A stretch of DNA of 50,360 nt from an uncultured bacterium (lineage in GTDB: Bacteria; Calescibacteriota; Calescibacteriia; Calescibacteriales; Calescibacteriaceae): positions 1 to 50,360 of the forward strand of contig CALHPK010000004.1 of NCBI GenBank assembly GCA_938036315.1. The letters run 5' to 3'. The position numbers and the translations under genes are program-made. Each line of letters starts with the position of its first letter. The first letter of the stretch is position 1. The notes beneath the pieces were generated by a model that was not told the DNA's origin, did not search any database, and worked only from the letters and a program-made list of their open reading frames with translations. Shown one piece after another: positions 9,651 to 31,766 of this stretch.

Positions 9651-10388
9651 ATGGAATGTAAAAGTACAGTAAAGCTGGTGGTTTCAGAGATAAAGAAAGT
9701 TATAGGTAAAAGAGAGATTCTGAAGGGAGTTTCATTTGAGTGTTCAGCTGGCGAGATAGTTACATTGCTTGGTCCAAATGGTGCTGGTAAAACTACGACA
9801 TTTCTCATAACAGCTGGCTTTTATAAACCTGATGGTGGTAGGATCTTGATTCAGAGAGATGGGTTGGAAATAGATGTTACATTTTTCCCTACGTATAGAA
9901 AGTCCAAGGAGGGTATAGTGTATCTCCCTCAGGAACGGTCTTTCTTTGATGATATAACTATTTATGAGAATTTTGTCATAGCTTCTGAACTTGCCAGAAT
10001 CGGAAAGGAAAAGATATTTGAGGTTGCAGAAAAGTTTGGGATTACCAATTTGTTAAAGAGGAAACCACCAGAGGTATCTGGGGGAGAAAGAAGGAAGGCG
10101 GAGATAGCCAGAATTTTTTTGCTTTCACCAAAATTTCTGATCTTAGATGAACCGTTTGCAGGAATTGATCCTAAATCTATTCAGAGTATTGCTTCTCTTA
10201 TTAAGGAGTTGTCTCAGCTTCCAATGGGAATAATTGTATCAGATCACAATGTCAGGGATGTTCTTAGAATATCTTCAAGAGTTTATCTTATATCAGATGG
10301 GATCATTTTAGAAAGTGGTTCACCATCTGACATTGTGAAATCTATAAAAGCTCAGAGTACATTCTTTGGAGAAGAGTTTGATATATAA
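9651..10388 (+). CDS. lptB: LPS export ABC transporter ATP-binding protein LptB
   Basis: A 245-residue ABC ATPase that would power lipopolysaccharide extraction with LptFG at the inner membrane. Walker A GPNGAGKTTT, Q-loop YLPQERSFF, signature VSGGERRKAEIAR, Walker B FLILDEPFAGID and the LptB-typical switch MGIIVSDHNVRDVLR are all present. LptF, LptG, LptA and LptC are not in the window. A GAGGAG Shine-Dalgarno lies 7 nt before ATG. It heads a five-gene plus-strand cluster of envelope proteins. A small insertion (QRDGLEIDVTFFPTY) lies between the Walker A region and the Q-loop. Confidence 0.88.
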   Translation: MECKSTVKLVVSEIKKVIGKREILKGVSFECSAGEIVTLLGPNGAGKTTTFLITAGFYKPDGGRILIQRDGLEIDVTFFPTYRKSKEGIVYLPQERSFFDDITIYENFVIASELARIGKEKIFEVAEKFGITNLLKRKPPEVSGGERRKAEIARIFLLSPKFLILDEPFAGIDPKSIQSIASLIKELSQLPMGIIVSDHNVRDVLRISSRVYLISDGIILESGSPSDIVKSIKAQSTFFGEEFDI

Positions 10389-10451: not shown

Positions 10452-12212
10452 ATGCATGATGCATACAAATATTTTTTAAAATTCGTTCTCAGATATAAGA
10501 AAGAGTATATCGTTGGAGCTTTTTTTACCGTCACATCTGCCGTATTTGGAGTAGCGTCCCCGTACCTTGTGAAAATGGCAATAGAGGCTATTGAAAATGG
10601 TACAACAAAGAATTTTATAATTTATATGGCCTGTGCTGTTGCATCGTTTGGGATATTAAGAGGAATTTTCCTCTATGTTGGCAGGAGAATTATTGTGGGG
10701 ACCTCCCGCCTTATTGAGAGGGACATAAGGGAAAACCTTTACGAAAAAGTAATATTTACCAAAACCGAATTTTTCGACAAAGAAGGAACCGGGAAGATAT
10801 CTTCCAGAGTTATAAACGATGTCGAGAATATAAGATCTATGCTCGGGTTTGGTGGCATGATAGCCTTTCATCTAGCTTTTATTCTGATGTTCGGCATTAT
10901 TTCCGAACTTATATTGAATATTACCTTGACTTTAGTAAGTATTATCCCGCTTGTGATGATATCCATTATTGTTATTGTGTTTGAAGGGAAGATTTTTCGG
11001 GAATCAGAAAATGTTCAGGAGATTCTTTCTGAAATATCAGATTATTCTCAAAATATTTTCTCATCTATAAGACTGATCAAGAGTTTTGTTCTCGAACCAA
11101 AAGTTGGAAATGAGTTTAAAAGCATATCAGGAGTGTATTTGAATAAGAATCTTGAGCTTGCAAAGCTTAGAGCATTGTTTGAAGGTCTGACGATTTTTTT
11201 TGCATCACTATCACTTATAGTCGTTGTTCTTGTGGGGGGGAAGATGGTACTTGATAAGAAAATTCCTTTATCTATTCTAAGTGGATTTATAGCGTATCAG
11301 CTTCTTCTCATCTGGCCAGCGATGGCAATAGGATATTTTGTTATTATAATCCAGCGCGGGCTTGCTTGCGTTAAAAGAATCTACGAACTTATAAGTAACC
11401 CCGTCGAGGTGGATAATCTAAATTCATACTCCAACTATAAAGGATCAAACATTTTTGATAACTTAACTTATGACATTGAAGTATCAAACTTGAATTTCGG
11501 TATTCTTAAAGATATAAATATTTATATACCTGCAGGTAGTAAAGTATGTGTAATCGGAAAAATAGGTTCGGGTAAGACAACCTTGCTTCATTCAATTGGA
11601 GGTCTTTACGATATACCAGAAAACTCTGTGTTTATAGGAGGGTTTGACATCAAAAAGTTCCCAAAATTAAAACTTTACGAGATTATCTCATTTGTTTTTC
11701 AGGAAAATTTCTTCTGGTCATCCACGATAAAAGATAATGTCCTATTGGGAAAGGGTGATAGTTTCTTCATACAAAGCGGTGCTGGCAACGGAGTTGAAGA
11801 TTATGAAATAATAGATGCATTGAGTTTTGCAAAGTTCGACCTGGAAAGTTTCCCGCTATATGAGGTGATCGGTGAAAAGGGAGTAAAGCTTTCCGGTGGG
11901 CAGAAAGAGAGATTGAGCTTGGCTAGAGCAATAATCAAAAAACCAAAAATACTTATTCTTGATGATCCATTTGCCAATATTGATGTTCAGACAGAAAGAA
12001 AAATACTATTAGATCTTTTTGATTACGCAAAAGAAAATAATGTAACTATTATATTTGCTACTCACAGGGTAACTTACCTTGATAGTTTTGATCTTGTGAT
12101 CTTTCTTGAAGATGGAAGAGTAATAGAGGTTGGTTCACCAAAAGAATTGTTGTTTAAGGATACTAAAACAAGGATGGTTTTTGAATTAGCAAATGAAATA
12201 TTGTGGGAGTGA
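10452..12212 (+). CDS. ABC half-exporter, degenerate-site subunit
   Basis: A 586-residue MsbA-type half transporter: six transmembrane helices (about residues 18-310) followed by a nucleotide-binding domain. Walker A GKIGSGKTT (about 369-377), intact signature LSGGQ (480-484) and H-loop His (538, ATHR). The residue after the Walker B Asp is Asp instead of the catalytic Glu (ILILDDPFANID, D504-D505). This is the pattern of the non-catalytic subunit in heterodimeric exporters such as TM287/288, BmrCD or TmrAB. The partner is the next gene, 41 nt downstream. Substrate unknown; lipids or drugs are typical of the family. Confidence 0.9.
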   Translation: MHDAYKYFLKFVLRYKKEYIVGAFFTVTSAVFGVASPYLVKMAIEAIENGTTKNFIIYMACAVASFGILRGIFLYVGRRIIVGTSRLIERDIRENLYEKVIFTKTEFFDKEGTGKISSRVINDVENIRSMLGFGGMIAFHLAFILMFGIISELILNITLTLVSIIPLVMISIIVIVFEGKIFRESENVQEILSEISDYSQNIFSSIRLIKSFVLEPKVGNEFKSISGVYLNKNLELAKLRALFEGLTIFFASLSLIVVVLVGGKMVLDKKIPLSILSGFIAYQLLLIWPAMAIGYFVIIIQRGLACVKRIYELISNPVEVDNLNSYSNYKGSNIFDNLTYDIEVSNLNFGILKDINIYIPAGSKVCVIGKIGSGKTTLLHSIGGLYDIPENSVFIGGFDIKKFPKLKLYEIISFVFQENFFWSSTIKDNVLLGKGDSFFIQSGAGNGVEDYEIIDALSFAKFDLESFPLYEVIGEKGVKLSGGQKERLSLARAIIKKPKILILDDPFANIDVQTERKILLDLFDYAKENNVTIIFATHRVTYLDSFDLVIFLEDGRVIEVGSPKELLFKDTKTRMVFELANEILWE

Positions 12213-12253: not shown

Positions 12254-14011
12254 ATGGGAAAGGGTAAAAATGAGTTTGATATTGAAAGCAGATTTAGAGC
12301 TAAGAATGAGCTGAAAATCCTCCTTGAATTTTTGTCCTATGCCCTGAAATTCAAATGGACTTTTATTGCTGCTCTCTTTTTCATTGTGGTTGATATATCT
12401 TCTGAAGTTGCTATTCCATTTGTAATAAGATATGCTGTGGACGTGGGGGTAGGTGGAGAGGATTTGAAGCTTCTTATTATTTCTTCTGGGGGGCTTCTTC
12501 TTGCAGTCACCATTAATTCTTTAGCTCGGGGAGGATCTATATATCTTACAAATAAACTCGGACAGAACGTTCTTTATGAGCTCAGAACTATCGTTCTATC
12601 TCATATTTTGAAATTGCCTTTGAATTTTTTCGATAGGACTCATAGTGGCAAACTTGTTATACGAGTTACCAACGATATAGAGAACCTTAATGAATTTTTA
12701 GTTTCAGGCCTTATAACTTTTTTTGTTGATGCTTTAATCATTGTGGGAGTAATTTTTGCTATGTTTATTCTTAATGTCGAACTTGCTATTTGTGTTCTTT
12801 CAGTTTTCCCTGTTATGTTGTTGATAACTTTATTTTTTAGAAAGCATGCTTCAGAAATATATCTTAAGGTAAGAAAAAAGATTTCCGAGCTTAATTCCTT
12901 TATTGCTGAAAGCATAATCGGTATAAAGACTCTTAAAACTCTTCCAGCATATCTCACTTCGTTAGCAAGATTCAAATCAATAAATAAAGAATATTCTGAT
13001 TATGTGTTTTTGAGTATAAAGATGTTCGCATTCTTTTTCTCATCTATCATTATGCTATCGTCCATCTCGTTATCATTGGCACTGGGATTGGGAGGATTAA
13101 AAATACTTTCCGGTGAAATTTCATTTGGAACATTTTTAGCCTTCTGGTATGCAGTGAACAAACTTTTTGATCCGATTTGGGATTTCAGCGAAAAATATAA
13201 TATTTTCCAATCAGCAGTTGCATCAGCAAAAAGATTGCATGAGATCATGAGCGAAAAAACAGAAGAAAGTATAGTACCCAAAATATCAATTTCAGACAAT
13301 GGATCAAAAAGAGAAATAAGATACGGAAAAATAGATTTCTCCGATGTTCATTTCTCTTACGACGGGATCAGGGAGATAATTAGAGGAGCAAGCTTTAGTA
13401 TAAACCCTGCTGAAACCGTTGCAATTGTTGGACTAACTGGAGCTGGCAAAACAACAATTGCAAACCTCCTCACAAGAATGTATATTCCACAAAAAGGAAA
13501 AATACTCATAGATGATCAAGATATTTCCAATTTCCCGCTTGATGAAATAAGAAGAAAAATCGCATTTGTACAGCAAGATCTGTTCATCCTACCAGGAAAA
13601 GTAATCGATAACATAACACTGGGAGATAAATCTCTCGAAAAGTATGTGTTAGAGATAATAAGGAAAATTGACTTGAAGATCGATCTTTTTAAATTTGTCT
13701 CCAGTGATAGGGGCGGATTATCTTCTGGAGAAAAGCAAATAATTTCTATACTGCGAGCTTTATGTAGAGACCCCAAAATAATAATTTTTGATGAGGCTAC
13801 CGCTTTTATCGACCTTGAAACCGAGAAGCAGATTTTATCTATTTTGGACATCTTCGCTAAAGAAAAGACACTGATTAAGATAGCTCATAGAATCTCTACC
13901 ATAAAAAATTCTGATAAAGTTATTCTTATCAAAAATGGAGTAGCATACGAGTTTCCCCCTGAGTACTTCAGATCCAAGCAAAATTTAGTAAACTTCTTTT
14001 TAAACTACTAG
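12254..14011 (+). CDS. ABC half-exporter, catalytic-site partner subunit
   Basis: A 585-residue MsbA-type half transporter with an N-terminal six-helix domain and a C-terminal ATPase. Walker A GLTGAGKTT (393-401), Walker B IIIFDEATAFID with the catalytic Glu (E514) and H-loop IAHR. Its signature is LSSGE (489-493), diverged from LSGGQ. Paired with the upstream subunit, one composite site would be canonical (this Walker A/B with the partner's LSGGQ) and the other degenerate, as known for heterodimeric exporters. The next gene, an Lgt-like fusion, follows after 26 nt, so the exporter may act on lipids or lipoprotein precursors; this is only context. Confidence 0.9.
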   Translation: MGKGKNEFDIESRFRAKNELKILLEFLSYALKFKWTFIAALFFIVVDISSEVAIPFVIRYAVDVGVGGEDLKLLIISSGGLLLAVTINSLARGGSIYLTNKLGQNVLYELRTIVLSHILKLPLNFFDRTHSGKLVIRVTNDIENLNEFLVSGLITFFVDALIIVGVIFAMFILNVELAICVLSVFPVMLLITLFFRKHASEIYLKVRKKISELNSFIAESIIGIKTLKTLPAYLTSLARFKSINKEYSDYVFLSIKMFAFFFSSIIMLSSISLSLALGLGGLKILSGEISFGTFLAFWYAVNKLFDPIWDFSEKYNIFQSAVASAKRLHEIMSEKTEESIVPKISISDNGSKREIRYGKIDFSDVHFSYDGIREIIRGASFSINPAETVAIVGLTGAGKTTIANLLTRMYIPQKGKILIDDQDISNFPLDEIRRKIAFVQQDLFILPGKVIDNITLGDKSLEKYVLEIIRKIDLKIDLFKFVSSDRGGLSSGEKQIISILRALCRDPKIIIFDEATAFIDLETEKQILSILDIFAKEKTLIKIAHRISTIKNSDKVILIKNGVAYEFPPEYFRSKQNLVNFFLNY

Positions 14012-14037: not shown

Positions 14038-15663
14038 ATGTTCCCAAGATTTTCGATAGGAGATATATCTTTACCTTTCTTTTCAATAGGATTTTCAATA
14101 GCTTCTGTTATATTTCTTATCCTTTCTGTAAAATCTCTCAAAAATAGGGGTATAGATTTTGATGAATCTTCAACCATAGTTCTTTTAATTCTTTTTTCTG
14201 TTATTCTTTTCTCAAAGATACCCTTGGCTCTTTTTCACGGGCTGAGATTTTGGGATATGTTCAAATTTTGGGAAACAGGGCACACTTTATTTGGTGGGCT
14301 TATTATAAGCACACTTGTGGTTTATATTTATTCAAAAGTCAAAAAAATTGATTTTGTTAATATTTTGGCTGGGCTCTCATACCCTGCACTGTTTGCTCTT
14401 GCCGCATATAGATTATTTGTCTGTCTCCCTGTAGGATGTTGCTACGGTTTCCCATATCACCACGGTATACTGTTTACAGAAGAATCTTTTGCTGCTAAAG
14501 AATTCGGCAGAGCAGTGAGACTTTTCCCATCTCAACTTGTGGAAGCCTTTCTATTTTCTATTTTCGGTTTGATACTTTATGAGATTGAATGGAAAAAACT
14601 AAGTAAAAGCCCATCAGTTGAAGATAAAATCAGATATGAGCGTGACTACAATGAGAATATAATCTTACTTTTCCTGCTCTTTCTTACAATAGAAAGGTTT
14701 GTAGCTGAACTTATCAGATATGACATAAAAGAGAAGGTTATAAAAGTTGATAACTATGGATTAAGTGTATGGTTTTTCATCTCTTTGTTTATTTTCTCTG
14801 CGGTCTCATTTTATTTTAAGCTGTTGCGTAGATACATTGATGAGATAAAAGGAATTTTTTATTCAATTTTCCTGCTGATACCATTTGTGTCCTTGATTTC
14901 TCAATTCTCAAGTTGCTCTGGGAAAAATAAAAAGAATTTTGAGTATGTACCAGAAGCTATGAAGTTTATATATTCCTTTTCTCATTCAGTGGTTTTTATA
15001 TCCTATGTATTTATAAAAGTAAAGGGATCCATTGGTTCATGTGTGAAAATTTCGGGGGAAAAAGCAGATATAAATTGCTCATTTGATTTGAGAATTGCTT
15101 CCGGTAGTAGGAGCAATGCCGTGGGGAGTTGCAATGTTCGAGGTGATAAACTTTTAGATTGCAATGTCCGGCTTTATGGAAACAGATTCTATTCAGAAAT
15201 TTATGGTAATGTTGAATTCTATAAAGATTATAGTTTGTACCTTGAAAATATAACGGTAAATATCTTGAATAGCGATTTTTATAGTGGAAGTATTATTCTT
15301 GAGAAAGTAAGTTCGGAGATAGTCCTTATAGAGGGTGGAAGTACAAGGAATTTTAAAATTAAAGGAGAATCCCAGATGGAGGAGAGTAGAATAAAGATAG
15401 ATGGAGATCTTCTGGTCAGAGATGAAGGAGGAGAATCTCTCAAGATTCTACCCCGTGCTTTTGTGAGAATAAAAGGTTGTGTCGAGATAAAATCAAGCAT
15501 AATGTCCGATAACTTTATTATTTTTTCTGATACTGGTTGTGCTTGGCAGGGTAAAGTGGAATTCGACGGGATTCATTTTGACATACTGAATGGCTCATTT
15601 GTGGTTGATTCTGAGTCTTATCAATGTGAAGGAAAAAACCACTGTCCAATGATTTATTTTTGA
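14038..15663 (+). CDS. Lgt-like membrane domain fused to a lipoprotein-like secreted domain
   Basis: A 541-residue protein. Residues 1-265 are polytopic and resemble prolipoprotein diacylglyceryl transferase: FGGLI (85-89), R125 before VGCCYG (132-137), FPSQLVE (163-169) and ERFVAELIR (219-227) match the HGG, GR.GN...CCYG.P, hP.QlYE and YG..RF..E..R motifs. The Tyr of the YG..R motif is Leu (L216). After a charged stretch (RRYIDEIKG) comes a second signal-like helix ending in a lipobox-like FSSC (C293), then about 248 residues rich in beta strand with several Cys, ending in C-x5-C. That half resembles the lipoprotein at 44451. No stop separates the halves. A TTG at residue 263 could in principle start the second half separately. 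Function unknown. Confidence 0.7.
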   Translation: MFPRFSIGDISLPFFSIGFSIASVIFLILSVKSLKNRGIDFDESSTIVLLILFSVILFSKIPLALFHGLRFWDMFKFWETGHTLFGGLIISTLVVYIYSKVKKIDFVNILAGLSYPALFALAAYRLFVCLPVGCCYGFPYHHGILFTEESFAAKEFGRAVRLFPSQLVEAFLFSIFGLILYEIEWKKLSKSPSVEDKIRYERDYNENIILLFLLFLTIERFVAELIRYDIKEKVIKVDNYGLSVWFFISLFIFSAVSFYFKLLRRYIDEIKGIFYSIFLLIPFVSLISQFSSCSGKNKKNFEYVPEAMKFIYSFSHSVVFISYVFIKVKGSIGSCVKISGEKADINCSFDLRIASGSRSNAVGSCNVRGDKLLDCNVRLYGNRFYSEIYGNVEFYKDYSLYLENITVNILNSDFYSGSIILEKVSSEIVLIEGGSTRNFKIKGESQMEESRIKIDGDLLVRDEGGESLKILPRAFVRIKGCVEIKSSIMSDNFIIFSDTGCAWQGKVEFDGIHFDILNGSFVVDSESYQCEGKNHCPMIYF

Positions 15664-16780: not shown

Positions 16781-17755
16781 ATGATGACCTTAGCTATAGC
16801 TACTGTTGCTTTTACGATAAAGCTCGGGGCTTTATCTCCTGAGGGGACTTCGTATATGATTCTGGCAAATCAGGCGAAGGAAGAATTCGAGAAGTTGACC
16901 AATAAAGAAGTAAAGATTGTCTGGTATGCCGGAGGAGTTATGGGCGATGAACCCGAGATGGTCAGAAAGATAAGAATAGGTCAGCTTCATGGTGGGGGGT
17001 TTACCGGATATGGCCTTGGAGTGGTAGAACCATCTGTGAGGATATTTGAGTTGCCAGGGCTTTTCAAAAGCTATGAAGAATTCTTCTATGTTCAGTCAAA
17101 GCTTGAAGATGAGATAAAGAAAAGGTTTGAGGAGAAGGGTTTTGAACTTATCACATTCTTCCCAATAGGTTTTGTGTATATTTTTTCAGATCGGCCAATT
17201 CAGAAGCTTGAGGATTTTAACGGGGTGAAGTTGTGGGTTTGGTCAGGGGATCCCCTCGCTGCAGAAGTTGCCAAATCGTTGCAAGGTTATGCTCAGCTTG
17301 TAAATTTAGCTATTCCGGATGTCCTGACAGGGCTTCAAACTGGTATGATAAACGCCTTTTACAATCTACCATACGGCGCCGCAGCATTGCAGTGGGCAAA
17401 TTACATCAAATATATGATTGATTACCCTATTACTCTTTCTTTGGGAGGTGTAGTTGTAAGTAAGAAGGCTATGGAGAAACTGAAACCTGAATACAGAGCT
17501 GAATTAGTTAAGCTCATAAGGGATAAATTTAAAATAGCCTCAAAATCTTTGGTTGATGAGAATACAAAGTCCGTAGAAGAATTTAAGAAGAAAGGAATAA
17601 AACTTTTGTCACTACCTGAGGACTCTCCAGATTTGAAGAAATTTTTAGATATATTTTTCAAAATTCACGAAAAATTTAAGGGAGAGTTGTATCCTCCTGA
17701 ACTTTACGACAAGCTGTTAAAAATAGTGAACGAATATAGAAAAGAAAACAAATAA
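16781..17755 (+). CDS. TRAP transporter solute-binding protein DctP, first copy
   Basis: A 324-residue TRAP substrate-binding protein. Family landmarks are FTIKLGALSPEGTSY at the start of the mature part, the core GGVMGDEPEMVRKIRIGQLH, the conserved Arg-containing strand KLWVWSGDP and NAFYNLPYGAAALQW. Unlike the second copy it has almost no signal peptide: only about ten residues (MMTLAIATVA) precede the mature fold, and the frame is closed by TAA just upstream. Either export is by an unusual route, the start is damaged, or the frame was altered upstream. It precedes dctP2, dctQ and dctM and may provide a second specificity to the same permease. Confidence 0.9.
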   Translation: MMTLAIATVAFTIKLGALSPEGTSYMILANQAKEEFEKLTNKEVKIVWYAGGVMGDEPEMVRKIRIGQLHGGGFTGYGLGVVEPSVRIFELPGLFKSYEEFFYVQSKLEDEIKKRFEEKGFELITFFPIGFVYIFSDRPIQKLEDFNGVKLWVWSGDPLAAEVAKSLQGYAQLVNLAIPDVLTGLQTGMINAFYNLPYGAAALQWANYIKYMIDYPITLSLGGVVVSKKAMEKLKPEYRAELVKLIRDKFKIASKSLVDENTKSVEEFKKKGIKLLSLPEDSPDLKKFLDIFFKIHEKFKGELYPPELYDKLLKIVNEYRKENK

Positions 17756-17857
17756 GAGGTTAAGAAGAAGATAAATGATAAAGCTGAAGATATTCATTAT
17801 CTATTATATGCTATATATTTACAGTAGTAGGTGCTATGAAAACATAGTGAAACAGAA

Positions 17858-17889
17858 GATGTAAAAAATTGAAGGTGTAAAAAATTGAG
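17858..17889. repeat. 16-bp imperfect tandem duplication
   Basis: Two 16-bp units sharing TGTAAAAAATTGA, matching at 14 of 16 positions. It lies in the 177-nt spacer between the two dctP genes. Confidence 0.85.
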
Positions 17890-17919
17890 AATTATATATA
17901 ATAAAGTGAGAAAAAATTA

Positions 17920-17925
17920 TACAAT
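17920..17925 (+). promoter_or_regulatory. -10-like hexamer close to second dctP start
   Basis: TACAAT, 7 nt before the ATG at 17933, with no Shine-Dalgarno between. Could give a leaderless transcript. Confidence 0.3.
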
Positions 17926-17932
17926 AAATATT

Positions 17933-18943
17933 ATGATGAAGTTGAAGATATCTACCATTTTTATTTTTTTTGCTATATATTCTGTTTTGCTTGAAAGTTC
18001 TCTATTTGCCCAACAGCTCATTATTAAGGTAGGAACTTTGGCACCGGTGGGATCCATATGGTATGACCTTCTGAACACAAATGTTAAGAATATAAATGCT
18101 AAAGTTGGGGATAAAGTTAAAGTGATAATATATCCGGGTGGCGTTATGGGTGATGAAGAGGAGATGATAAAGAAGATAAGAATCGGTCAGCTACATGTCG
18201 GAGCTTTTACAATAAATGGGATAAAAAAGATTGCCCCAGAGCTTGGAGTTTTAGATCTCCCTATACTCTTTAAGAATTATAACGAGATAGATAAAATAAT
18301 AGAAATATTTTACGGAGATTTTGAACGCTTTTTCGAAAAAAGGGGATTCAAGCTCCTTCTCTTTGCAGAACAAGGATTTGTCTACTTTTATTCCAAAAGA
18401 GAAGATGTTTCAGGGTTTAGGGATTTAGGTAAAACTCGGGTCTGGGCCTGGAAAGGCGAGAGAGTGATGACAGAAATTGCAAAATTAGTCGGTACTAGCC
18501 CTATTTTCCTGGCAGTTCCTGATGTTCTTTCTGGGCTTGAATCTGGTATGATCGAATCTTTTCAGACAAGTCCTGTTGCCTGCCTGAGCCTTCAGTGGTG
18601 TAAGCTTGTAAAGGTAATTTTAGATTTCCCTTATAGATATGAACCAGGAGTAATCGTTATGTACAAGAAGATCTGGGATGAATTGCCTTCTGATGTTACG
18701 AAAGCGTTTGAGAGTGAGATGATAAAAGCAAAGCAGGAGTATAACCCTGCTATAAGGAGGACTCAGGAAGAGGCGAAAGCAAAGCTCAAAGAGATGGGGG
18801 TGAAATTTGTTAAACCTCAAGATGTAGACTGGCTTGAAAAGGAAGTAAAAGACAAGCTATGGTTTTCACAGGACAGTGGATACCCACACGATTTTCTAAG
18901 AAAAATTCTCGACGAATTAGAAAAACTTAGAACTAAGAAATGA
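17933..18943 (+). CDS. TRAP transporter solute-binding protein DctP, second copy
   Basis: A 336-residue periplasmic binding protein with a clear signal peptide (MMKLKISTIFIFF, cleavage near SLFA/QQ). The mature part shares the family core with the first copy: IKVGTLAPVGSIWYD, GGVMGDEEEMIKKIRIGQLH, RVWAWKGE and ESFQTSPVACLSLQW. The two copies are clearly paralogous but diverged, so they may bind different carboxylate-type ligands; the ligand is not predictable. Upstream in-frame codons back to a TTG at 17885 exist, but the ATG pair at 17933/17936 gives the proper signal peptide. Its stop overlaps the dctQ start (ATGA). Confidence 0.93.
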   Translation: MMKLKISTIFIFFAIYSVLLESSLFAQQLIIKVGTLAPVGSIWYDLLNTNVKNINAKVGDKVKVIIYPGGVMGDEEEMIKKIRIGQLHVGAFTINGIKKIAPELGVLDLPILFKNYNEIDKIIEIFYGDFERFFEKRGFKLLLFAEQGFVYFYSKREDVSGFRDLGKTRVWAWKGERVMTEIAKLVGTSPIFLAVPDVLSGLESGMIESFQTSPVACLSLQWCKLVKVILDFPYRYEPGVIVMYKKIWDELPSDVTKAFESEMIKAKQEYNPAIRRTQEEAKAKLKEMGVKFVKPQDVDWLEKEVKDKLWFSQDSGYPHDFLRKILDELEKLRTKK

Positions 18944-19452
18944 TCCTGAGGAAGATAAGTAATATCATTGAAAAGATAGAAAATTTCATCGTTTTCTTAC
19001 TCGTTATTTCTATGATAATTCTCTCATTTGTTCAGATAATGCTCAGAAATCTTTTTGCTATAAGTATTTTTTGGATTGATGATCTTACTCGCCATGCGGT
19101 AATATGGGTTGGATTTATTTCTATGTCAATTGTGTCAGCATATGGTAAGCATATAAATATAGATATTCTGTCAAGATTTTTTAGAGGTAAAAGTAGAAGG
19201 GGATTAGATGTATTTAGATATTTTGTTTCGGCCATCATCTCAGCCATTCTTGTATATGCTTCAATCAAGTTTGTTATGTATGAGAAAGAAGGTGGGGATG
19301 TATCTTTGACTTTGAAGATACCGGTTTGGTATCTTGAATTGTTTTTCCCTGTGGTTTTCTCACTCACTACTTTCAGATTTATTCTGCTTGTAGTGGAGAC
19401 AATAAGGGGAGTAAGAAAGGAAGAAGAAAAAGTGGGTGATTTTGCCATCTGA
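18940..19452 (+). CDS. dctQ: TRAP transporter small permease DctQ
   Basis: A 170-residue membrane protein with four predicted helices and the family motif FWIDDLTRHAVIWVGF, followed by SAYGKHINIDIL. DctQ pairs with DctM to form the TRAP membrane domain. It overlaps the upstream dctP stop by four bases and is followed by dctM after 15 nt, so the genes form one operon. Confidence 0.93.
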   Translation: MILRKISNIIEKIENFIVFLLVISMIILSFVQIMLRNLFAISIFWIDDLTRHAVIWVGFISMSIVSAYGKHINIDILSRFFRGKSRRGLDVFRYFVSAIISAILVYASIKFVMYEKEGGDVSLTLKIPVWYLELFFPVVFSLTTFRFILLVVETIRGVRKEEEKVGDFAI

Positions 19453-19467
19453 GAGGGGAGGTATTAT

Positions 19468-21006
19468 ATGGCGGGGGCTGCTGTATTAATCCTGTTAGGT
19501 CTTTTCATTTTGGCTTTCTCTGGTGTCCCATTATTTGCTGTTATGGCGCTGGGAGCTTTGATAGGATTTTATTTTATTGCACAAGTTGATATAGCAGTTA
19601 TAATTCAGGAAGCATATAAGCTTTCATCAGCTCCAGCTCTGATCGCTATCCCACTTTTCACTCTTGCCGGTTATATTCTCGCAGAATCTAAAGCTCCAGA
19701 AAGACTTCTCAGACTTACCAAAGCATATATAGGATGGCTCCCAGGAGGAGTCCCTCTTGTCGTTCTTGTTACAACTTCTTTCTTCACAGCTCTGACAGGA
19801 GCATCAGGAATAACAATAGTCGCTCTAGGAGGGTTACTTATGCCTATACTTGTCAAAGCCGGTTATTCTGAGAAATTCTCCTTAGGTATCGTTACTGCAA
19901 CAGGTGCTATAGGATTGTTACTCCCCCCTTCTCTCCCTATAATTCTTTACGGAGTTATTGCCCAGGTCCCTGTGAATGAGCTATTTATTGCTGGAATAAT
20001 CCCATGTATTGTTATGATATTTATTTTATTTATTTATGCATTTGTGGTTAGCATCTCTGGAAGGTCTAAGTTTCAGAAGGAAAAATTCAGTTTAAGAGAG
20101 ATTTTATCCTCTACAAAAGCGGCAATATTCGAAGTCCCTCTACCACTTTTTATAATTTGGGGAATATATACAGGCAAATTCACAGCTGCTGAAACAGCTA
20201 CTATAGCAGTTGTTTGGGTAATAATTGCAGAGATATTTATTTACAAAGATATTAAAGTGCGTGATTTCCCTAAAGTAGCCAAGGAGAGTATGCTCCTTGT
20301 GGGAGCGATTTTTTCAATTCTCGGTATGGCTATGGGTTTTACAAATTTCTTAATTGACCAAGAAGTTCCTCAGAAGCTTTTTGAAATTTCAAGAAAATTT
20401 ATCGAATCAAAATTGACGTTCTTTATAGTCCTTAATACTTTTCTGCTCGTTGTCGGGATGCTTATGGATATCTTCTCTGCCATCGTAGTTGTTGTTCCTC
20501 TGATAGTTCCAATTGCTGTAAATTACGGAATAGATCCAGTCCACCTTGGAATAGTCTTTCTTGCTAATTTGGAGATAGGATATCTAACTCCACCTGTCGG
20601 ATTGAATCTATTTATCTCTTCGTTCAGATTCGGAAAGCCAATAACATATATCTATAAGCTTATAGTTCCTTACATCTTGCTTTTGATTGTGGCTCTTTTG
20701 ATCATAACTTATGTTCCGCAGTTTTCTTTGAAATTAGTCCGTGGTGAAATCATAGCTGAGGTTACAGACGAGAAGGGAGAATTTATCCCAGCCAAGGTAA
20801 AAGTTCCAGAGGCAGGTATAGAGGTTGAGGGGAAAGGCAAGTTTAAGTTTTTTCTTCCACTTCCTGATTTTACAAAGCCACATAGATACCTTTTTGTATT
20901 CGAGGCTTATGGATATCAAACTGTGGCTCAGGAGATTAAGGTAGAAGCCAGGCGTACGGAAAAATTGAGAATCAGAATGGAAAGGAACCGGCAAAGTGGA
21001 GAATGA
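19468..21006 (+). CDS. dctM: TRAP transporter large permease DctM with extra C-terminal domain
   Basis: The first about 420 residues are a standard 12-helix DctM: FSGVPLFAVMALG, TASFF-like TTSFFTALTGASGITIVALG, GAIGLLLPPSLPIILYG and the late motif PPVGLNLFISS. DctM proteins are normally near 425-435 residues; this one has 512. The added about 85 residues start at GEIIAEVTDEKGEFIPAKV and look like a carboxypeptidase-regulatory-like beta-sandwich (conserved pattern of a variable hydroxyl-rich loop, then RYLFVFEAYGYQT and a closing strand). The tail would follow the last helix. Such extensions are not typical of the family. SD GAGGGGAGG precedes ATG. An initiator tRNA on the other strand lies 7 nt downstream. 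Confidence 0.92.
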   Translation: MAGAAVLILLGLFILAFSGVPLFAVMALGALIGFYFIAQVDIAVIIQEAYKLSSAPALIAIPLFTLAGYILAESKAPERLLRLTKAYIGWLPGGVPLVVLVTTSFFTALTGASGITIVALGGLLMPILVKAGYSEKFSLGIVTATGAIGLLLPPSLPIILYGVIAQVPVNELFIAGIIPCIVMIFILFIYAFVVSISGRSKFQKEKFSLREILSSTKAAIFEVPLPLFIIWGIYTGKFTAAETATIAVVWVIIAEIFIYKDIKVRDFPKVAKESMLLVGAIFSILGMAMGFTNFLIDQEVPQKLFEISRKFIESKLTFFIVLNTFLLVVGMLMDIFSAIVVVVPLIVPIAVNYGIDPVHLGIVFLANLEIGYLTPPVGLNLFISSFRFGKPITYIYKLIVPYILLLIVALLIITYVPQFSLKLVRGEIIAEVTDEKGEFIPAKVKVPEAGIEVEGKGKFKFFLPLPDFTKPHRYLFVFEAYGYQTVAQEIKVEARRTEKLRIRMERNRQSGE

Positions 21007-25991: not shown

Positions 25992-28283
25992 ATGAAATTG
26001 AAAGCTGTCTTCGTGAATTTCCTTCTGCTTTATGCTACTTGCGTATTCCCAAATTGCAAGCCTTCAAAGTCGAAAGTAGAGGACAAATTGAACATCAAAT
26101 TCCCACAAAATGCCTCCCAAATAGTTATATTAGGACAATCAAGTCATCTTGATATCTCTTGGTTCTATTCGTCAGATGAATATTATGAAAAACTTGTAAA
26201 AGGCATATTTATAAAATTTATAGATTTTGTAAAGTCAGATCCTCTCCACACCGGTTTCTTCGCTGAAACATTCTGGATCAGAAGATTTTTATCAGATGAA
26301 ACCGTTGAGAAAAGCATAAAGGATGAGTTCAGAAAATTTTTAGAGAACCAGAATATAAAGATTGAGGGCGGTGGAGTTGGAACAGATGACCACCTTGTGG
26401 TTCCTACTGAGTCCATTATAAGAAATTATCTCCGGGGCAGAGCATATCTGAAAGAACACAGGATCAATCCAACAGATTGTGCATGGATCCCAGATTCTTT
26501 TGGTTTCCTATCTTCTACACCTGATTTGCTATCGATTCTTGGATTCAAAGCTGTAGGGCTTTCACGTATCAATGGCTTCTCTCTTCAGACATCTAATTAC
26601 CTGAGAAGATTAACACAAGGCGATTTTGTTGAGAATTCAGGTGGGTGGGAACTATTCTCCTTGGGACAGCTTGTAAGGTGGAAAGGTCTCCGGTCGGAAA
26701 TTATCTTGTACTGGATGCCAAATTTATATGGTGTAGGTTCTTTCCTTTTCTGCAAGCTTGATGTTCCATCTAATGTCTATATTAACCCTGATATGGAGTG
26801 TATAGGTGACCCAGCAGATGAGGAGATTTTTTCTCAGAAGCTGATAGAGTATCTTAGGTACGTGAAGACCAACTCACGCTTTGTTTTTATACCAATCGGA
26901 TGGGATTTTGAAAAGCCAAAATTTGAGCTTGGAAAATTTATAAGATACTGGAATGAAAAGTACTTCCCAATAACTGGGGTATTTGTTGTAGCAGGTTCTT
27001 TCTGTGACTATATAGACCTTGTGCAGAAGGATAAGAGTGATCTCCCTGTTTTCTCTGGACATCTGGCTCCCTACTGGACTGGATACTTCGGTGCTAGGGC
27101 TTACCTTAAAAAATTTCTGTTCTCTTCCGTATTCTCTCTGCTCTCTGCAGAAACAACAATAGGGATAGCAAAATTAGTAGGTGTAAATATCTATTACAAT
27201 ACAGATGAGCTATGGTGGGAACTTTCTAAAATGTCAAACCATGATACTGGAGCTGGAACCCTTTACAGAAGAGTTGAAAACATTGAAACAAAACCATTGG
27301 TTGAAAAAATAGAAGAGGAGCTGAAAAATCTGTGGAATTTTATAGGGGCTAAACTTTCCAAGAATGTTCCAAAAGGAAAATACTTAGTGGTGAATACTTT
27401 GGGTTTTGAAAGAAGTGGAGTTCCACCATTTGGATTTATTATAAAGGACAAAGTTATTTTTGATCAACCAGTCTATCATCCTTGTCCAAATATTTTCAAA
27501 CCTGTGCTCTGGTATGACGAAGGAGGAGCTTGGAGGATTGGATCTGAAGTTCCACCCGGAAGGTTTGAGGAGGTTGATTTCTATTCTTATCGCATAACTC
27601 ATTCTTGTCATTACTTTGTAAGAGAAGATAATGGTTCCGAGTTTTATTTCCGTGTGGAGTTCATACCTTTGGGGCACTCCTTGACACTGAGATTTACATT
27701 CCCAAGAAAAATATCCAAGATTCTGGTTGAAGGTCACCTTGGAATTTATGAATTTGAAAAACGATATCTTATATACAACCCTACATTTTTGCCATTTTTG
27801 ACTTTCTTCAAAGTTGTTCTTGAGGATGGAAGTTCTGAAACTTTTTCTGTTAAAGGTGCCAGGGGAGTAGCTCAGACATCCGAAAGAACAGTAGATATCT
27901 TTGTCGGAAGGAATGTTAGCTTTGAAAAGCATGATATACTGGGACCTTTAGGTGATATGAGCGAGGATGGTCCATTTGAAATACATTTTGTCACTTTCAG
28001 CAACCTGGATGACATAGATTCATTTAAGAAATCCTACGATTTTCATTTTCCGTTGAAATACATTGAGGGAAGTTCTGAGACGGGAGTTTTACTTTCGAAG
28101 TTCTCAGCCCTTTCGGTGAGGAACAATATAGGAATCTTTTTTTCAGAAGATTTTGTCAGGGTTATAATTCCTGTGGAAAACCTGGAATTTGAAAGTGATG
28201 TTTTCTCATCAGCCGAATCCATATCTGTAATACATCAAAGTAGAATACATTTTTCAAACACTTTCAGATTGAAAAGAAGGTAA
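25992..28283 (+). CDS. GH38-like glycoside hydrolase, probable lipoprotein
   Basis: A 763-residue protein with an N-terminal hydrophobic segment and Cys at 17 and 22 (YATCVFPNC), a loose lipobox. The catalytic region resembles alpha-mannosidase family 38: SSHLDISWF (H52, D54), GGGVGTDDHLVVPTESI and AWIPDSFGFLSSTPDLLSIL, where D168 matches the nucleophile Asp of the family's WLPD.FG motif. The rest includes a mid helical region and a C-terminal beta-rich region, as in GH38. True GH38 motifs such as HLDPGWL and GGW.M.DEA are modified here, so activity on mannosides is inferred. If lipidated, it would act in the periplasm or on the cell surface. It is transcribed alone. Confidence 0.7.
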   Translation: MKLKAVFVNFLLLYATCVFPNCKPSKSKVEDKLNIKFPQNASQIVILGQSSHLDISWFYSSDEYYEKLVKGIFIKFIDFVKSDPLHTGFFAETFWIRRFLSDETVEKSIKDEFRKFLENQNIKIEGGGVGTDDHLVVPTESIIRNYLRGRAYLKEHRINPTDCAWIPDSFGFLSSTPDLLSILGFKAVGLSRINGFSLQTSNYLRRLTQGDFVENSGGWELFSLGQLVRWKGLRSEIILYWMPNLYGVGSFLFCKLDVPSNVYINPDMECIGDPADEEIFSQKLIEYLRYVKTNSRFVFIPIGWDFEKPKFELGKFIRYWNEKYFPITGVFVVAGSFCDYIDLVQKDKSDLPVFSGHLAPYWTGYFGARAYLKKFLFSSVFSLLSAETTIGIAKLVGVNIYYNTDELWWELSKMSNHDTGAGTLYRRVENIETKPLVEKIEEELKNLWNFIGAKLSKNVPKGKYLVVNTLGFERSGVPPFGFIIKDKVIFDQPVYHPCPNIFKPVLWYDEGGAWRIGSEVPPGRFEEVDFYSYRITHSCHYFVREDNGSEFYFRVEFIPLGHSLTLRFTFPRKISKILVEGHLGIYEFEKRYLIYNPTFLPFLTFFKVVLEDGSSETFSVKGARGVAQTSERTVDIFVGRNVSFEKHDILGPLGDMSEDGPFEIHFVTFSNLDDIDSFKKSYDFHFPLKYIEGSSETGVLLSKFSALSVRNNIGIFFSEDFVRVIIPVENLEFESDVFSSAESISVIHQSRIHFSNTFRLKRR

Positions 28284-30761: not shown

Positions 30762-31766
30762 TTACTGAGTCTTTTTGTGAAATGGGAATTGCCTTCTGAC
30801 TATTATATACAATCCAAAAGTAACAATTCCTACGGAGATAAAGTGATTCAACGTTATTAAGTTATCTATTATATGACCAGAAAGCCCTGATGGATCTCTT
30901 AGAAATTCAAGGAAAAATCTCAAAATCCCGTATGATATCAGAAAGATAGCAGAAATTATACCTTCAAAATATCTAACTTTTTTGCCAATTGTGATTCCCA
31001 GGTATTTTAGAAAGTAAAATAGGATTGCAAATAGTGGGATAAAAATGAAATCTATAATCAGGTCAAATTTTATATTCTTGGAATACCAAAGGTAGTAAAG
31101 GCGTAGAAGTAAGAGTTCTATCAATAAAAATATATCTGTTTTGAATTCGAACAATTCTTTGACGCGTAGTTTTGTATTTTTTTCTGCTTCTGAAAATTTC
31201 CATCCAACCATAAGCCCTCTTGTTAGAGCAAAAGTGAAGAACATTCCAACTGCTTCGTAAATCTGGGTTGGATGAATTGGTATTCCGGCCAATGCAAGAG
31301 ATTTTTCCTTGAAGACTACAGATGTTGGGAAATCGGTTGGCTTTCCATAGCAACACCCAGCGGAAAAGCAGCCCCATCTCCCTATTGATAAACCGAGAAT
31401 GGTTGCTAAAGAAATAAGATCTAACACTTGAGGGGGATTCTTTTTGTGTTTCTTTGACCATATATAAACTGTTACGGCTGCTACAATTACCCCTCCATAC
31501 CAGGCGAGTCCTCCCTCCCATAATTTGAATATTTTCAATGGGTCGCTCAGGTAATCTCCTATATTCATAATTATGTAAGCGATTCTTGTCCCTATTATTC
31601 CAGATATAAGAACCCAAATTATAAGATCTAGCACATCATAAGACTTGATTCTTAGTTCTTCTGAGACTCTGGCTGCATATTCCGATGACAGAATAAATGC
31701 TAGGGCCAAGAAAACTCCGTATGTGTATAGCTTGATGGGACCTATTTCAGCAAGTATTGGATGCAT
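30762..31766 (-). CDS. lgt: prolipoprotein diacylglyceryl transferase Lgt
   Basis: A 334-residue seven-helix inner-membrane enzyme that transfers diacylglycerol to the lipobox Cys. Motifs are LAWYGGVI, GRWGCFSAGCCYGKPTD (catalytic Arg of the GR motif), IPIHPTQIYEAVG and YGILRFFLEFLRDPSG. It is longer than the usual 260-290 residues because about 60-70 residues with extra hydrophobic sequence (FLLIELLLLRLYYLW) lie before the final motif. Start overlaps the murA 3' end by 25 bases on the same strand. A second, diverged Lgt-like domain occurs at 14038. Confidence 0.93.
   Translation of the reverse strand: MHPILAEIGPIKLYTYGVFLALAFILSSEYAARVSEELRIKSYDVLDLIIWVLISGIIGTRIAYIIMNIGDYLSDPLKIFKLWEGGLAWYGGVIVAAVTVYIWSKKHKKNPPQVLDLISLATILGLSIGRWGCFSAGCCYGKPTDFPTSVVFKEKSLALAGIPIHPTQIYEAVGMFFTFALTRGLMVGWKFSEAEKNTKLRVKELFEFKTDIFLLIELLLLRLYYLWYSKNIKFDLIIDFIFIPLFAILFYFLKYLGITIGKKVRYFEGIISAIFLISYGILRFFLEFLRDPSGLSGHIIDNLITLNHFISVGIVTFGLYIIVRRQFPFHKKTQ

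What the first reader, a model, noticed from the sequence alone, without database searches (positions are those of the whole stretch)
14038..15663. Lgt-like domain fused to a lipoprotein-like secreted domain
One uninterrupted frame joins a diverged Lgt-type membrane domain (R125, VGCCYG, ERFVAELIR; the usual motif Tyr is Leu) to a second signal-like helix with a lipobox-like FSSC (C293) and about 248 secreted residues. I know no described architecture that joins an Lgt-like enzyme to its potential substrate type. A canonical Lgt is encoded separately at 30762, so this copy is extra and may have a new role.
Basis: partly seen in the sequence, partly recalled or inferred. Interest (0 to 1): 0.7.

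Follow-up and report, generated by a model that had tools for sequence, protein, structure and literature searches.

The report
Lipid-transferase-like enzyme fused to a lipoprotein
In a little-known group of hot-spring bacteria, one protein joins a diverged copy of the enzyme that puts lipid anchors on proteins to a protein of the kind that receives such anchors; the join is real and conserved, but what it does has not been tested.

Summary
Window 14038-15663 is one 541-codon frame. Residues 5-255 match Lgt (PF01790, 3e-20). A hydrophobic helix ending at Cys293 and about 248 residues of a beta-rich, cysteine-rich domain follow. The genome belongs to Ca. Calescibacteriota, a hot-spring lineage. 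All five held genomes have the locus plus a separate canonical Lgt. Four carry it fused; in one (G002) it is two overlapping genes, and there the second half is a stand-alone lipoprotein-like protein with its own signal peptide. G002 is the window's sister, so fusion looks ancestral and the split secondary. dN/dS is low across the whole frame, junction included. Cys293 is invariant. The relaxed residue before it is normal here: BamD orthologues show the same. The beta domain resembles, over its last 61 residues, stand-alone lipoproteins found in all five genomes. The Lgt half keeps the phosphate-binding arginines (R143, R239), but Y26, H103, D129, G142, G145 and Y235 have changed and a histidine three residues before H103 is new and invariant. 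Best reading: a diverged Lgt paralogue fused to a lineage-specific lipoprotein precursor, probably lipidated at Cys293 and perhaps cut free by LspA. Lipidation in cis is possible, unproven. New architecture of a known enzyme family.

The parts
14038..14832 (+). Lgt-like 7-TM domain (residues 1-265), diverged paralogue of prolipoprotein diacylglyceryl transferase
   Evidence: PF01790 E 3e-20; E. coli Lgt 5azb is the only Foldseek match under 0.001, E 4.5e-4; residue map
14281..14283 (+). codon of His82, invariant in the five extra copies, at the position of E. coli residue 100; the H103 position holds Phe (Val in G002)
14833..14916 (+). cytoplasmic positive linker, eighth hydrophobic helix and lipobox-like FSSC ending at Cys293 (codon 14914-14916)
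   Evidence: hydrophobicity and charges; Cys invariant in 5 of 5
14917..15660 (+). beta-rich C-terminal domain (residues 294-541): one helix then about 15 strands; 8 further cysteines conserved in all five
   Evidence: AlphaFold model, pLDDT 83, pTM 0.84; alignment; stand-alone lipoprotein-like relatives
30762..31766 (-). canonical Lgt of the same genome
   Evidence: TIGR00544 130.5 bits, cut-off 118.9
9651..10388 (+). LptB-like ABC ATPase; also near the locus in G002, on the other strand
   Evidence: TIGR04406 234.6 bits, just under the cut-off of 240
10452..12212 (+). ABC exporter half, MsbA/Smd-like
12254..14011 (+). ABC exporter half, MsbA-like, directly upstream of the fusion; also upstream of it in L047, L048 and L049
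15688..16497 (+). 269-aa membrane protein directly downstream; its relative directly follows the split pair in G002
   Evidence: 35% identity, E 7e-30

Best explanation
The locus encodes one membrane polyprotein made of a diverged Lgt paralogue (7 TM, N-out, C-in) followed by a lineage-specific lipoprotein precursor. The eighth helix acts as an internal signal peptide. It carries the beta-rich domain across the inner membrane and puts Cys293 at the outer leaflet, where diacylglycerol is attached. LspA then probably cuts before Cys293 and frees a lipoprotein of about 249 residues from the Lgt-like half. The split gene pair in G002 would give the same two products. Shown by sequence: the conserved fused frame, the invariant Cys, purifying selection on both halves, LspA genes in all five genomes, relaxed lipoboxes as normal for the lineage. 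Inferred: topology, lipidation, cleavage. Open: whether the canonical Lgt in trans or the fused Lgt-like domain in cis modifies Cys293.
For: The same fusion in four genomes of two genera, from separate assemblies. In G002 a 4-base overlap (ATGA) separates the genes, and the second starts with MRTKKKTTNKKIAILMILLTLTQNC behind a strong Shine-Dalgarno sequence, -8.5 kcal/mol. The Cys is invariant in 5 of 5. The residue before it is S, M, R, N, N; BamD orthologues of the same five genomes have S, A, H, H, D. Stand-alone relatives of the beta domain have a signal helix ending in Cys, at least one such protein in each genome (hhalign 88% over the last 61 residues). LspA in 5 of 5. dN/dS 0.094 Lgt part, 0.106 linker and helix, 0.206 beta domain. 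Loop charges are compatible with E. coli Lgt topology, with the eighth helix leading out. R143, G154, E202, R239, E243 and R246 equivalents are kept.
Against: The lipobox is non-classical (F at -3 in the window; M or R at -1 in relatives). The signal is internal, and no case of LspA releasing a domain from an eight-helix precursor was found in the papers searched. Y26 and H103 equivalents, essential in E. coli (PMC13251419), are changed. Residues 310-336 are also fairly hydrophobic and could be a further TM helix, which would turn the beta domain inward.
Confidence: 0.55

Rival explanations
1. The fusion stays intact as an inner-membrane protein. The Lgt-like half no longer does ordinary diacylglyceryl transfer but binds phospholipid, or transfers from it to another acceptor. 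The beta domain is its fixed periplasmic part, and Cys293 is not processed. The upstream MsbA-like exporter supplies or removes the lipid.
For: Y26, H103, D129, G142, G145 and Y235 are changed while the phosphate-binding arginines stay; -1 residues M and R; MsbA-like gene directly upstream in four genomes and LptB nearby in two; the helix 300-330 before the beta sheet is missing from the stand-alone lipoproteins.
Against: In G002 the second half is a free protein with its own signal-like N-terminus and the same Cys. BamD shows equally odd lipoboxes here.
Confidence: 0.27
2. The halves are also, or mainly, made as two proteins through an internal start near residue 258-263, as in G002.
For: L049 has in-frame ATG M258, 24 residues before the Cys, with a fair Shine-Dalgarno sequence (-6.6); L048 has the same ATG with a weak one.
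Against: The window has only TTG L263 at a fitting distance and L047 only a TTG 31 residues before the Cys, both without a Shine-Dalgarno sequence. The frame is kept open and under purifying selection through the junction, which separate starts would not require. The fused genes' own starts also lack a Shine-Dalgarno sequence, so its absence is weak evidence.
Confidence: 0.13
3. The fusion is an assembly or sequencing error.
For: All genomes are draft assemblies; one relative is split.
Against: Four separate assemblies carry the fused frame at 42-44% protein identity to the window, and L048 and L049 have equal length with low dN/dS.
Confidence: 0.02

Closest known systems
Lgt, phosphatidylglycerol-prolipoprotein diacylglyceryl transferase (E. 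coli, PDB 5azb/5azc)
   Same: Fold, 7 helices, R143/G154/E202/R239/E243/R246 equivalents
   Different: Y26 to F, H103 to F or V, D129 lost, G142 to Y, G145 to V, Y235 to L; a new invariant His at position 100; one residue inserted after R143; an extra helix and a lipoprotein domain at the C-terminus
Second Lgt homologue MSMEG_5408 of M. smegmatis, with Y26H and N146C and presumed low activity (PMC13251419)
   Same: An extra, diverged copy beside the main Lgt, with a changed Y26 and N146 replaced by Cys
   Different: No fused lipoprotein reported in that paper
M. tuberculosis Lgt with a long C-terminal extension (PMC13251419)
   Same: Lgt with a large extra C-terminal part
   Different: That extension is on the species' own Lgt and is said there to have no homology with known proteins; no internal signal helix with Cys was seen described for it in the passages read
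Lineage-specific lipoprotein-like family of Calescibacteriaceae (L147-L151)
   Same: C-terminal beta-rich part, conserved Cys pattern, Cys after a signal helix
   Different: No Lgt domain; no hydrophobic helix before the beta part

Membership tests
PF01790 LGT superfamily | Profile score above the curated cut-off | tested here: met
   73 bits against 24.9
PF01790 LGT superfamily | Lgt fold with seven helices | tested here: met
   Foldseek best match 5azb, E 4.5e-4 (mean pLDDT only 69); helices
Lgt equivalog (true diacylglyceryl transferase) | TIGR00544 equivalog cut-off | tested here: not met
   32.8 bits against 118.9
Lgt equivalog (true diacylglyceryl transferase) | The six residues essential in E. 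coli: Y26, H103, R143, N146, G154, R239 (PMC13251419) | tested here: not met
   R143, G154 and R239 kept; Y26 to F; H103 to F or V; N146 to C, as in the canonical copy here and most Lgts compared
Lgt equivalog (true diacylglyceryl transferase) | Diacylglyceryl transfer from PG to a prolipoprotein Cys | not testable with these tools
   Needs biochemistry
Bacterial lipoprotein (C-terminal half) | Hydrophobic signal helix followed by an invariant Cys | tested here: met
   Cys invariant in 5 of 5; helix 270-288
Bacterial lipoprotein (C-terminal half) | Classical lipobox [LVI][ASTVI][GAS]C | tested here: inconclusive
   FSSC in the window, M/R/N at -1 in relatives; BamD orthologues of the lineage are equally relaxed
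Bacterial lipoprotein (C-terminal half) | Signal at the N-terminus of the precursor | tested here: not met
   Internal at residue 270 in four genomes; N-terminal only in split G002
Bacterial lipoprotein (C-terminal half) | LspA encoded in the genome | tested here: met
   PF01252 in 5 of 5 genomes
LptA/LptC or LolA/LolB-type periplasmic lipid carriers (C-terminal half) | Fold match | tested here: inconclusive
   Best Z 7.6 among unrelated beta proteins; LptG/LptC/LolA rows weak

The most novel reading that the evidence does not exclude
A self-lipidating protein: the fused Lgt-like domain, with its catalytic histidine moved from position 103 to 100, attaches diacylglycerol only to the Cys of its own covalently joined lipoprotein, which LspA then releases. 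This would be a dedicated enzyme-substrate pair in one chain.
Probability: 0.18. Interest if true: 0.8.

Novelty: new variant of a known kind. Interest (0 to 1): 0.55.

Why it matters
Lgt is described as a general enzyme that serves all lipoproteins of a cell. A conserved paralogue tied to one lipoprotein would suggest that lipidation can be dedicated to a single partner, and a natural enzyme-substrate fusion would help to catch Lgt with its protein substrate, a complex which PMC13251419 indicates still lacks a high-resolution structure. The relaxed lipobox seen in BamD of this lineage also warns that standard lipoprotein predictors may miss many of its lipoproteins.

Tried and rejected
Artefact: rejected by four independent assemblies. 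Lgt fusions elsewhere: PF01790 and the subfamily profile were run over 386 genomes. Only the best matches are listed, so this survey is partial. Nine of the listed long frames (366-695 aa) were read: they are Lgts with read-through upstream sequence or modest extensions, with no lipoprotein domain. Fold of the C-terminal half: no convincing PDB match; porin, OccK, apoB, LolA, LptG and LptC rows are all weak. Pfam and PDB sequence searches of it were empty or chance. LptC or LptA identity was considered because LptB lies nearby; not supported. LptF/LptG was found only as a fragment in one of the five genomes. Internal start: no Shine-Dalgarno-backed candidate in the window. A paper search for Lgt gene fusions found none.

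Full report
The reading frame. Window 14038-15663 encodes 541 aa without a stop. Residues 5-255 match PF01790 at 73 bits, cut-off 24.9, and no other domain is recognised. The window is a contig of a 1.87-Mb draft genome. Named relatives found with the fusion are Ca. Calescibacterium nevadense, bacterium HR19 and MAG BF2.bins.44, so the lineage is Ca. Calescibacteriota, hot-spring bacteria judged likely Gram-negative in PMC4791363.

Conservation. Of 60 genomes first searched, the four of the same family have the full-length relative. Three carry it as one frame (537, 537 and 531 aa, 42-44% identity). G002 carries it as two genes with an ATGA overlap, 265 and 278 aa. Every genome also has a separate, higher-scoring Lgt. 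The second G002 protein begins with a charged, hydrophobic signal-like stretch that ends in a Cys at the place of Cys293. Its start has a strong Shine-Dalgarno sequence, whereas the fused genes' own starts have none. In the tree the extra copies form one group (100/100) on a long branch. X_G002 is sister to X_window (97/91), and the canonical Lgt gives the same pairing (100/95). One split in G002 is therefore simpler than two fusions, though a five-genome sample cannot settle it. Where the paralogue came from, old duplication or transfer, is unresolved.

Selection. Between L048 and L049, dN/dS is 0.094 in the Lgt part, 0.106 in the linker and helix, 0.206 in the C-terminal part, without indels. 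The whole frame, junction included, behaves as coding sequence. Identities of extra copies between genomes (50-58%) lie below those of the canonical Lgt (58-71%).

The Lgt-like half. On an alignment of about 50 sequences with E. coli Lgt, all five extra copies keep G99, R143, G154, E202, R239, E243 and R246. They change Y26 to F, G98 to T, H103 to F or V, D129 to S, V or A, G142 to Y, G145 to V and Y235 to L. D129 is Asp in every other sequence of that set, and the Y at 142 and V at 145 occur in no other. N146 to C and E151 to C are shared with the canonical copy and most Lgts of the set. PMC13251419 lists Y26, H103, R143, N146, G154 and R239 as required in E. coli, with H103 replaced by Y, W or F and N146 by C in some lineages. 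H82, at E. coli position 100, is invariant in the five and His in no other sequence of the set. A histidine one helical turn from H103 may take over its role; this is a guess. The half is a PF01790 member but fails the Lgt equivalog cut-off, so it is filed as a diverged paralogue, not as an Lgt.

The junction. Hydrophobic peaks and loop charges are compatible with the E. coli topology, with KLLRRYIDEIK inside and the eighth helix leading out to Cys293. The residue before the Cys is S, M, R, N and N in the five, outside the classical lipobox in four of them. As a control, BamD (PF13525), a conserved lipoprotein, was read in the same five genomes: its Cys is kept and the residue before it is S, A, H, H and D. 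A relaxed position is thus normal in this family and does not speak against lipidation. LspA is present in all five. The residue statistics (12 candidates) point the same way but are small.

The C-terminal half. Five-sequence searches give no Pfam or PDB relative. Alone it models well (pLDDT 83, pTM 0.84) as a helix and a long beta meander, with no convincing structural match. Eight cysteines after Cys293 are invariant in all five. A profile of fused and split copies finds a weak relative in G001 (E 3e-4). A profile widened with it finds further members in all five genomes, single-domain proteins whose readable N-termini end a signal helix with Cys (LNK|C, LSK|C, IFT|C, LS|C, LG|C). hhalign links the two groups over the last 61 residues (88%, E 3e-6). 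The relation is sound for that stretch and only likely for the rest. The hydrophobic helix at 300-330 is absent from these relatives; it could pack against the Lgt half or be another TM helix.

Surroundings. An MsbA-like ABC half-transporter lies directly upstream in four genomes. An LptB-like ATPase lies near the locus in the window and G002, and a 269-aa membrane protein follows it in both. This hints at envelope lipid traffic but proves no joint function.

Verdict. The fusion is real, conserved and, as far as searched, confined to this family. It is most likely a lipoprotein precursor behind a diverged Lgt paralogue (0.55). An intact membrane protein with a changed lipid role is the main rival (0.27). 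Self-lipidation in cis is the most novel reading left open (0.18).

Noticed in passing
L131-L135 (G004, G003, G000:C7:17725-18288, G002, G001): BamD orthologues keep the lipid-attachment Cys but the residue before it is H, A, S, H, D: the lipobox is relaxed in this lineage, so standard predictors may miss lipoproteins.
   Followed up: partly
L147, L148, L149, L150, L151: Lineage-specific family of stand-alone lipoprotein-like proteins sharing the C-terminal Cys pattern of the fusion's beta domain; in G001 two copies lie in tandem (L058), in G004 two lie close together.
   Followed up: partly
window 30762-31766: The canonical Lgt is long (334 aa): the profile matches in two stretches with extra sequence between them, also in relatives; it has Tyr at the H103 position.
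   Followed up: no
five genomes; L125: LptB-like ATPases are present but LptF/LptG (PF03739) is found only as a fragment in G001; the LPS exporter may be diverged or missed in these drafts.
   Followed up: partly
window 16781-21006: TRAP transporter operon with two successive DctP binding proteins; the DctM protein carries a C-terminal stretch weakly like a carboxypeptidase regulatory domain (E 0.005).
   Followed up: no
window 25992-28283: 763-aa protein with a signal helix ending in FPNC, another lipobox-like site with Asn before the Cys.
   Followed up: no
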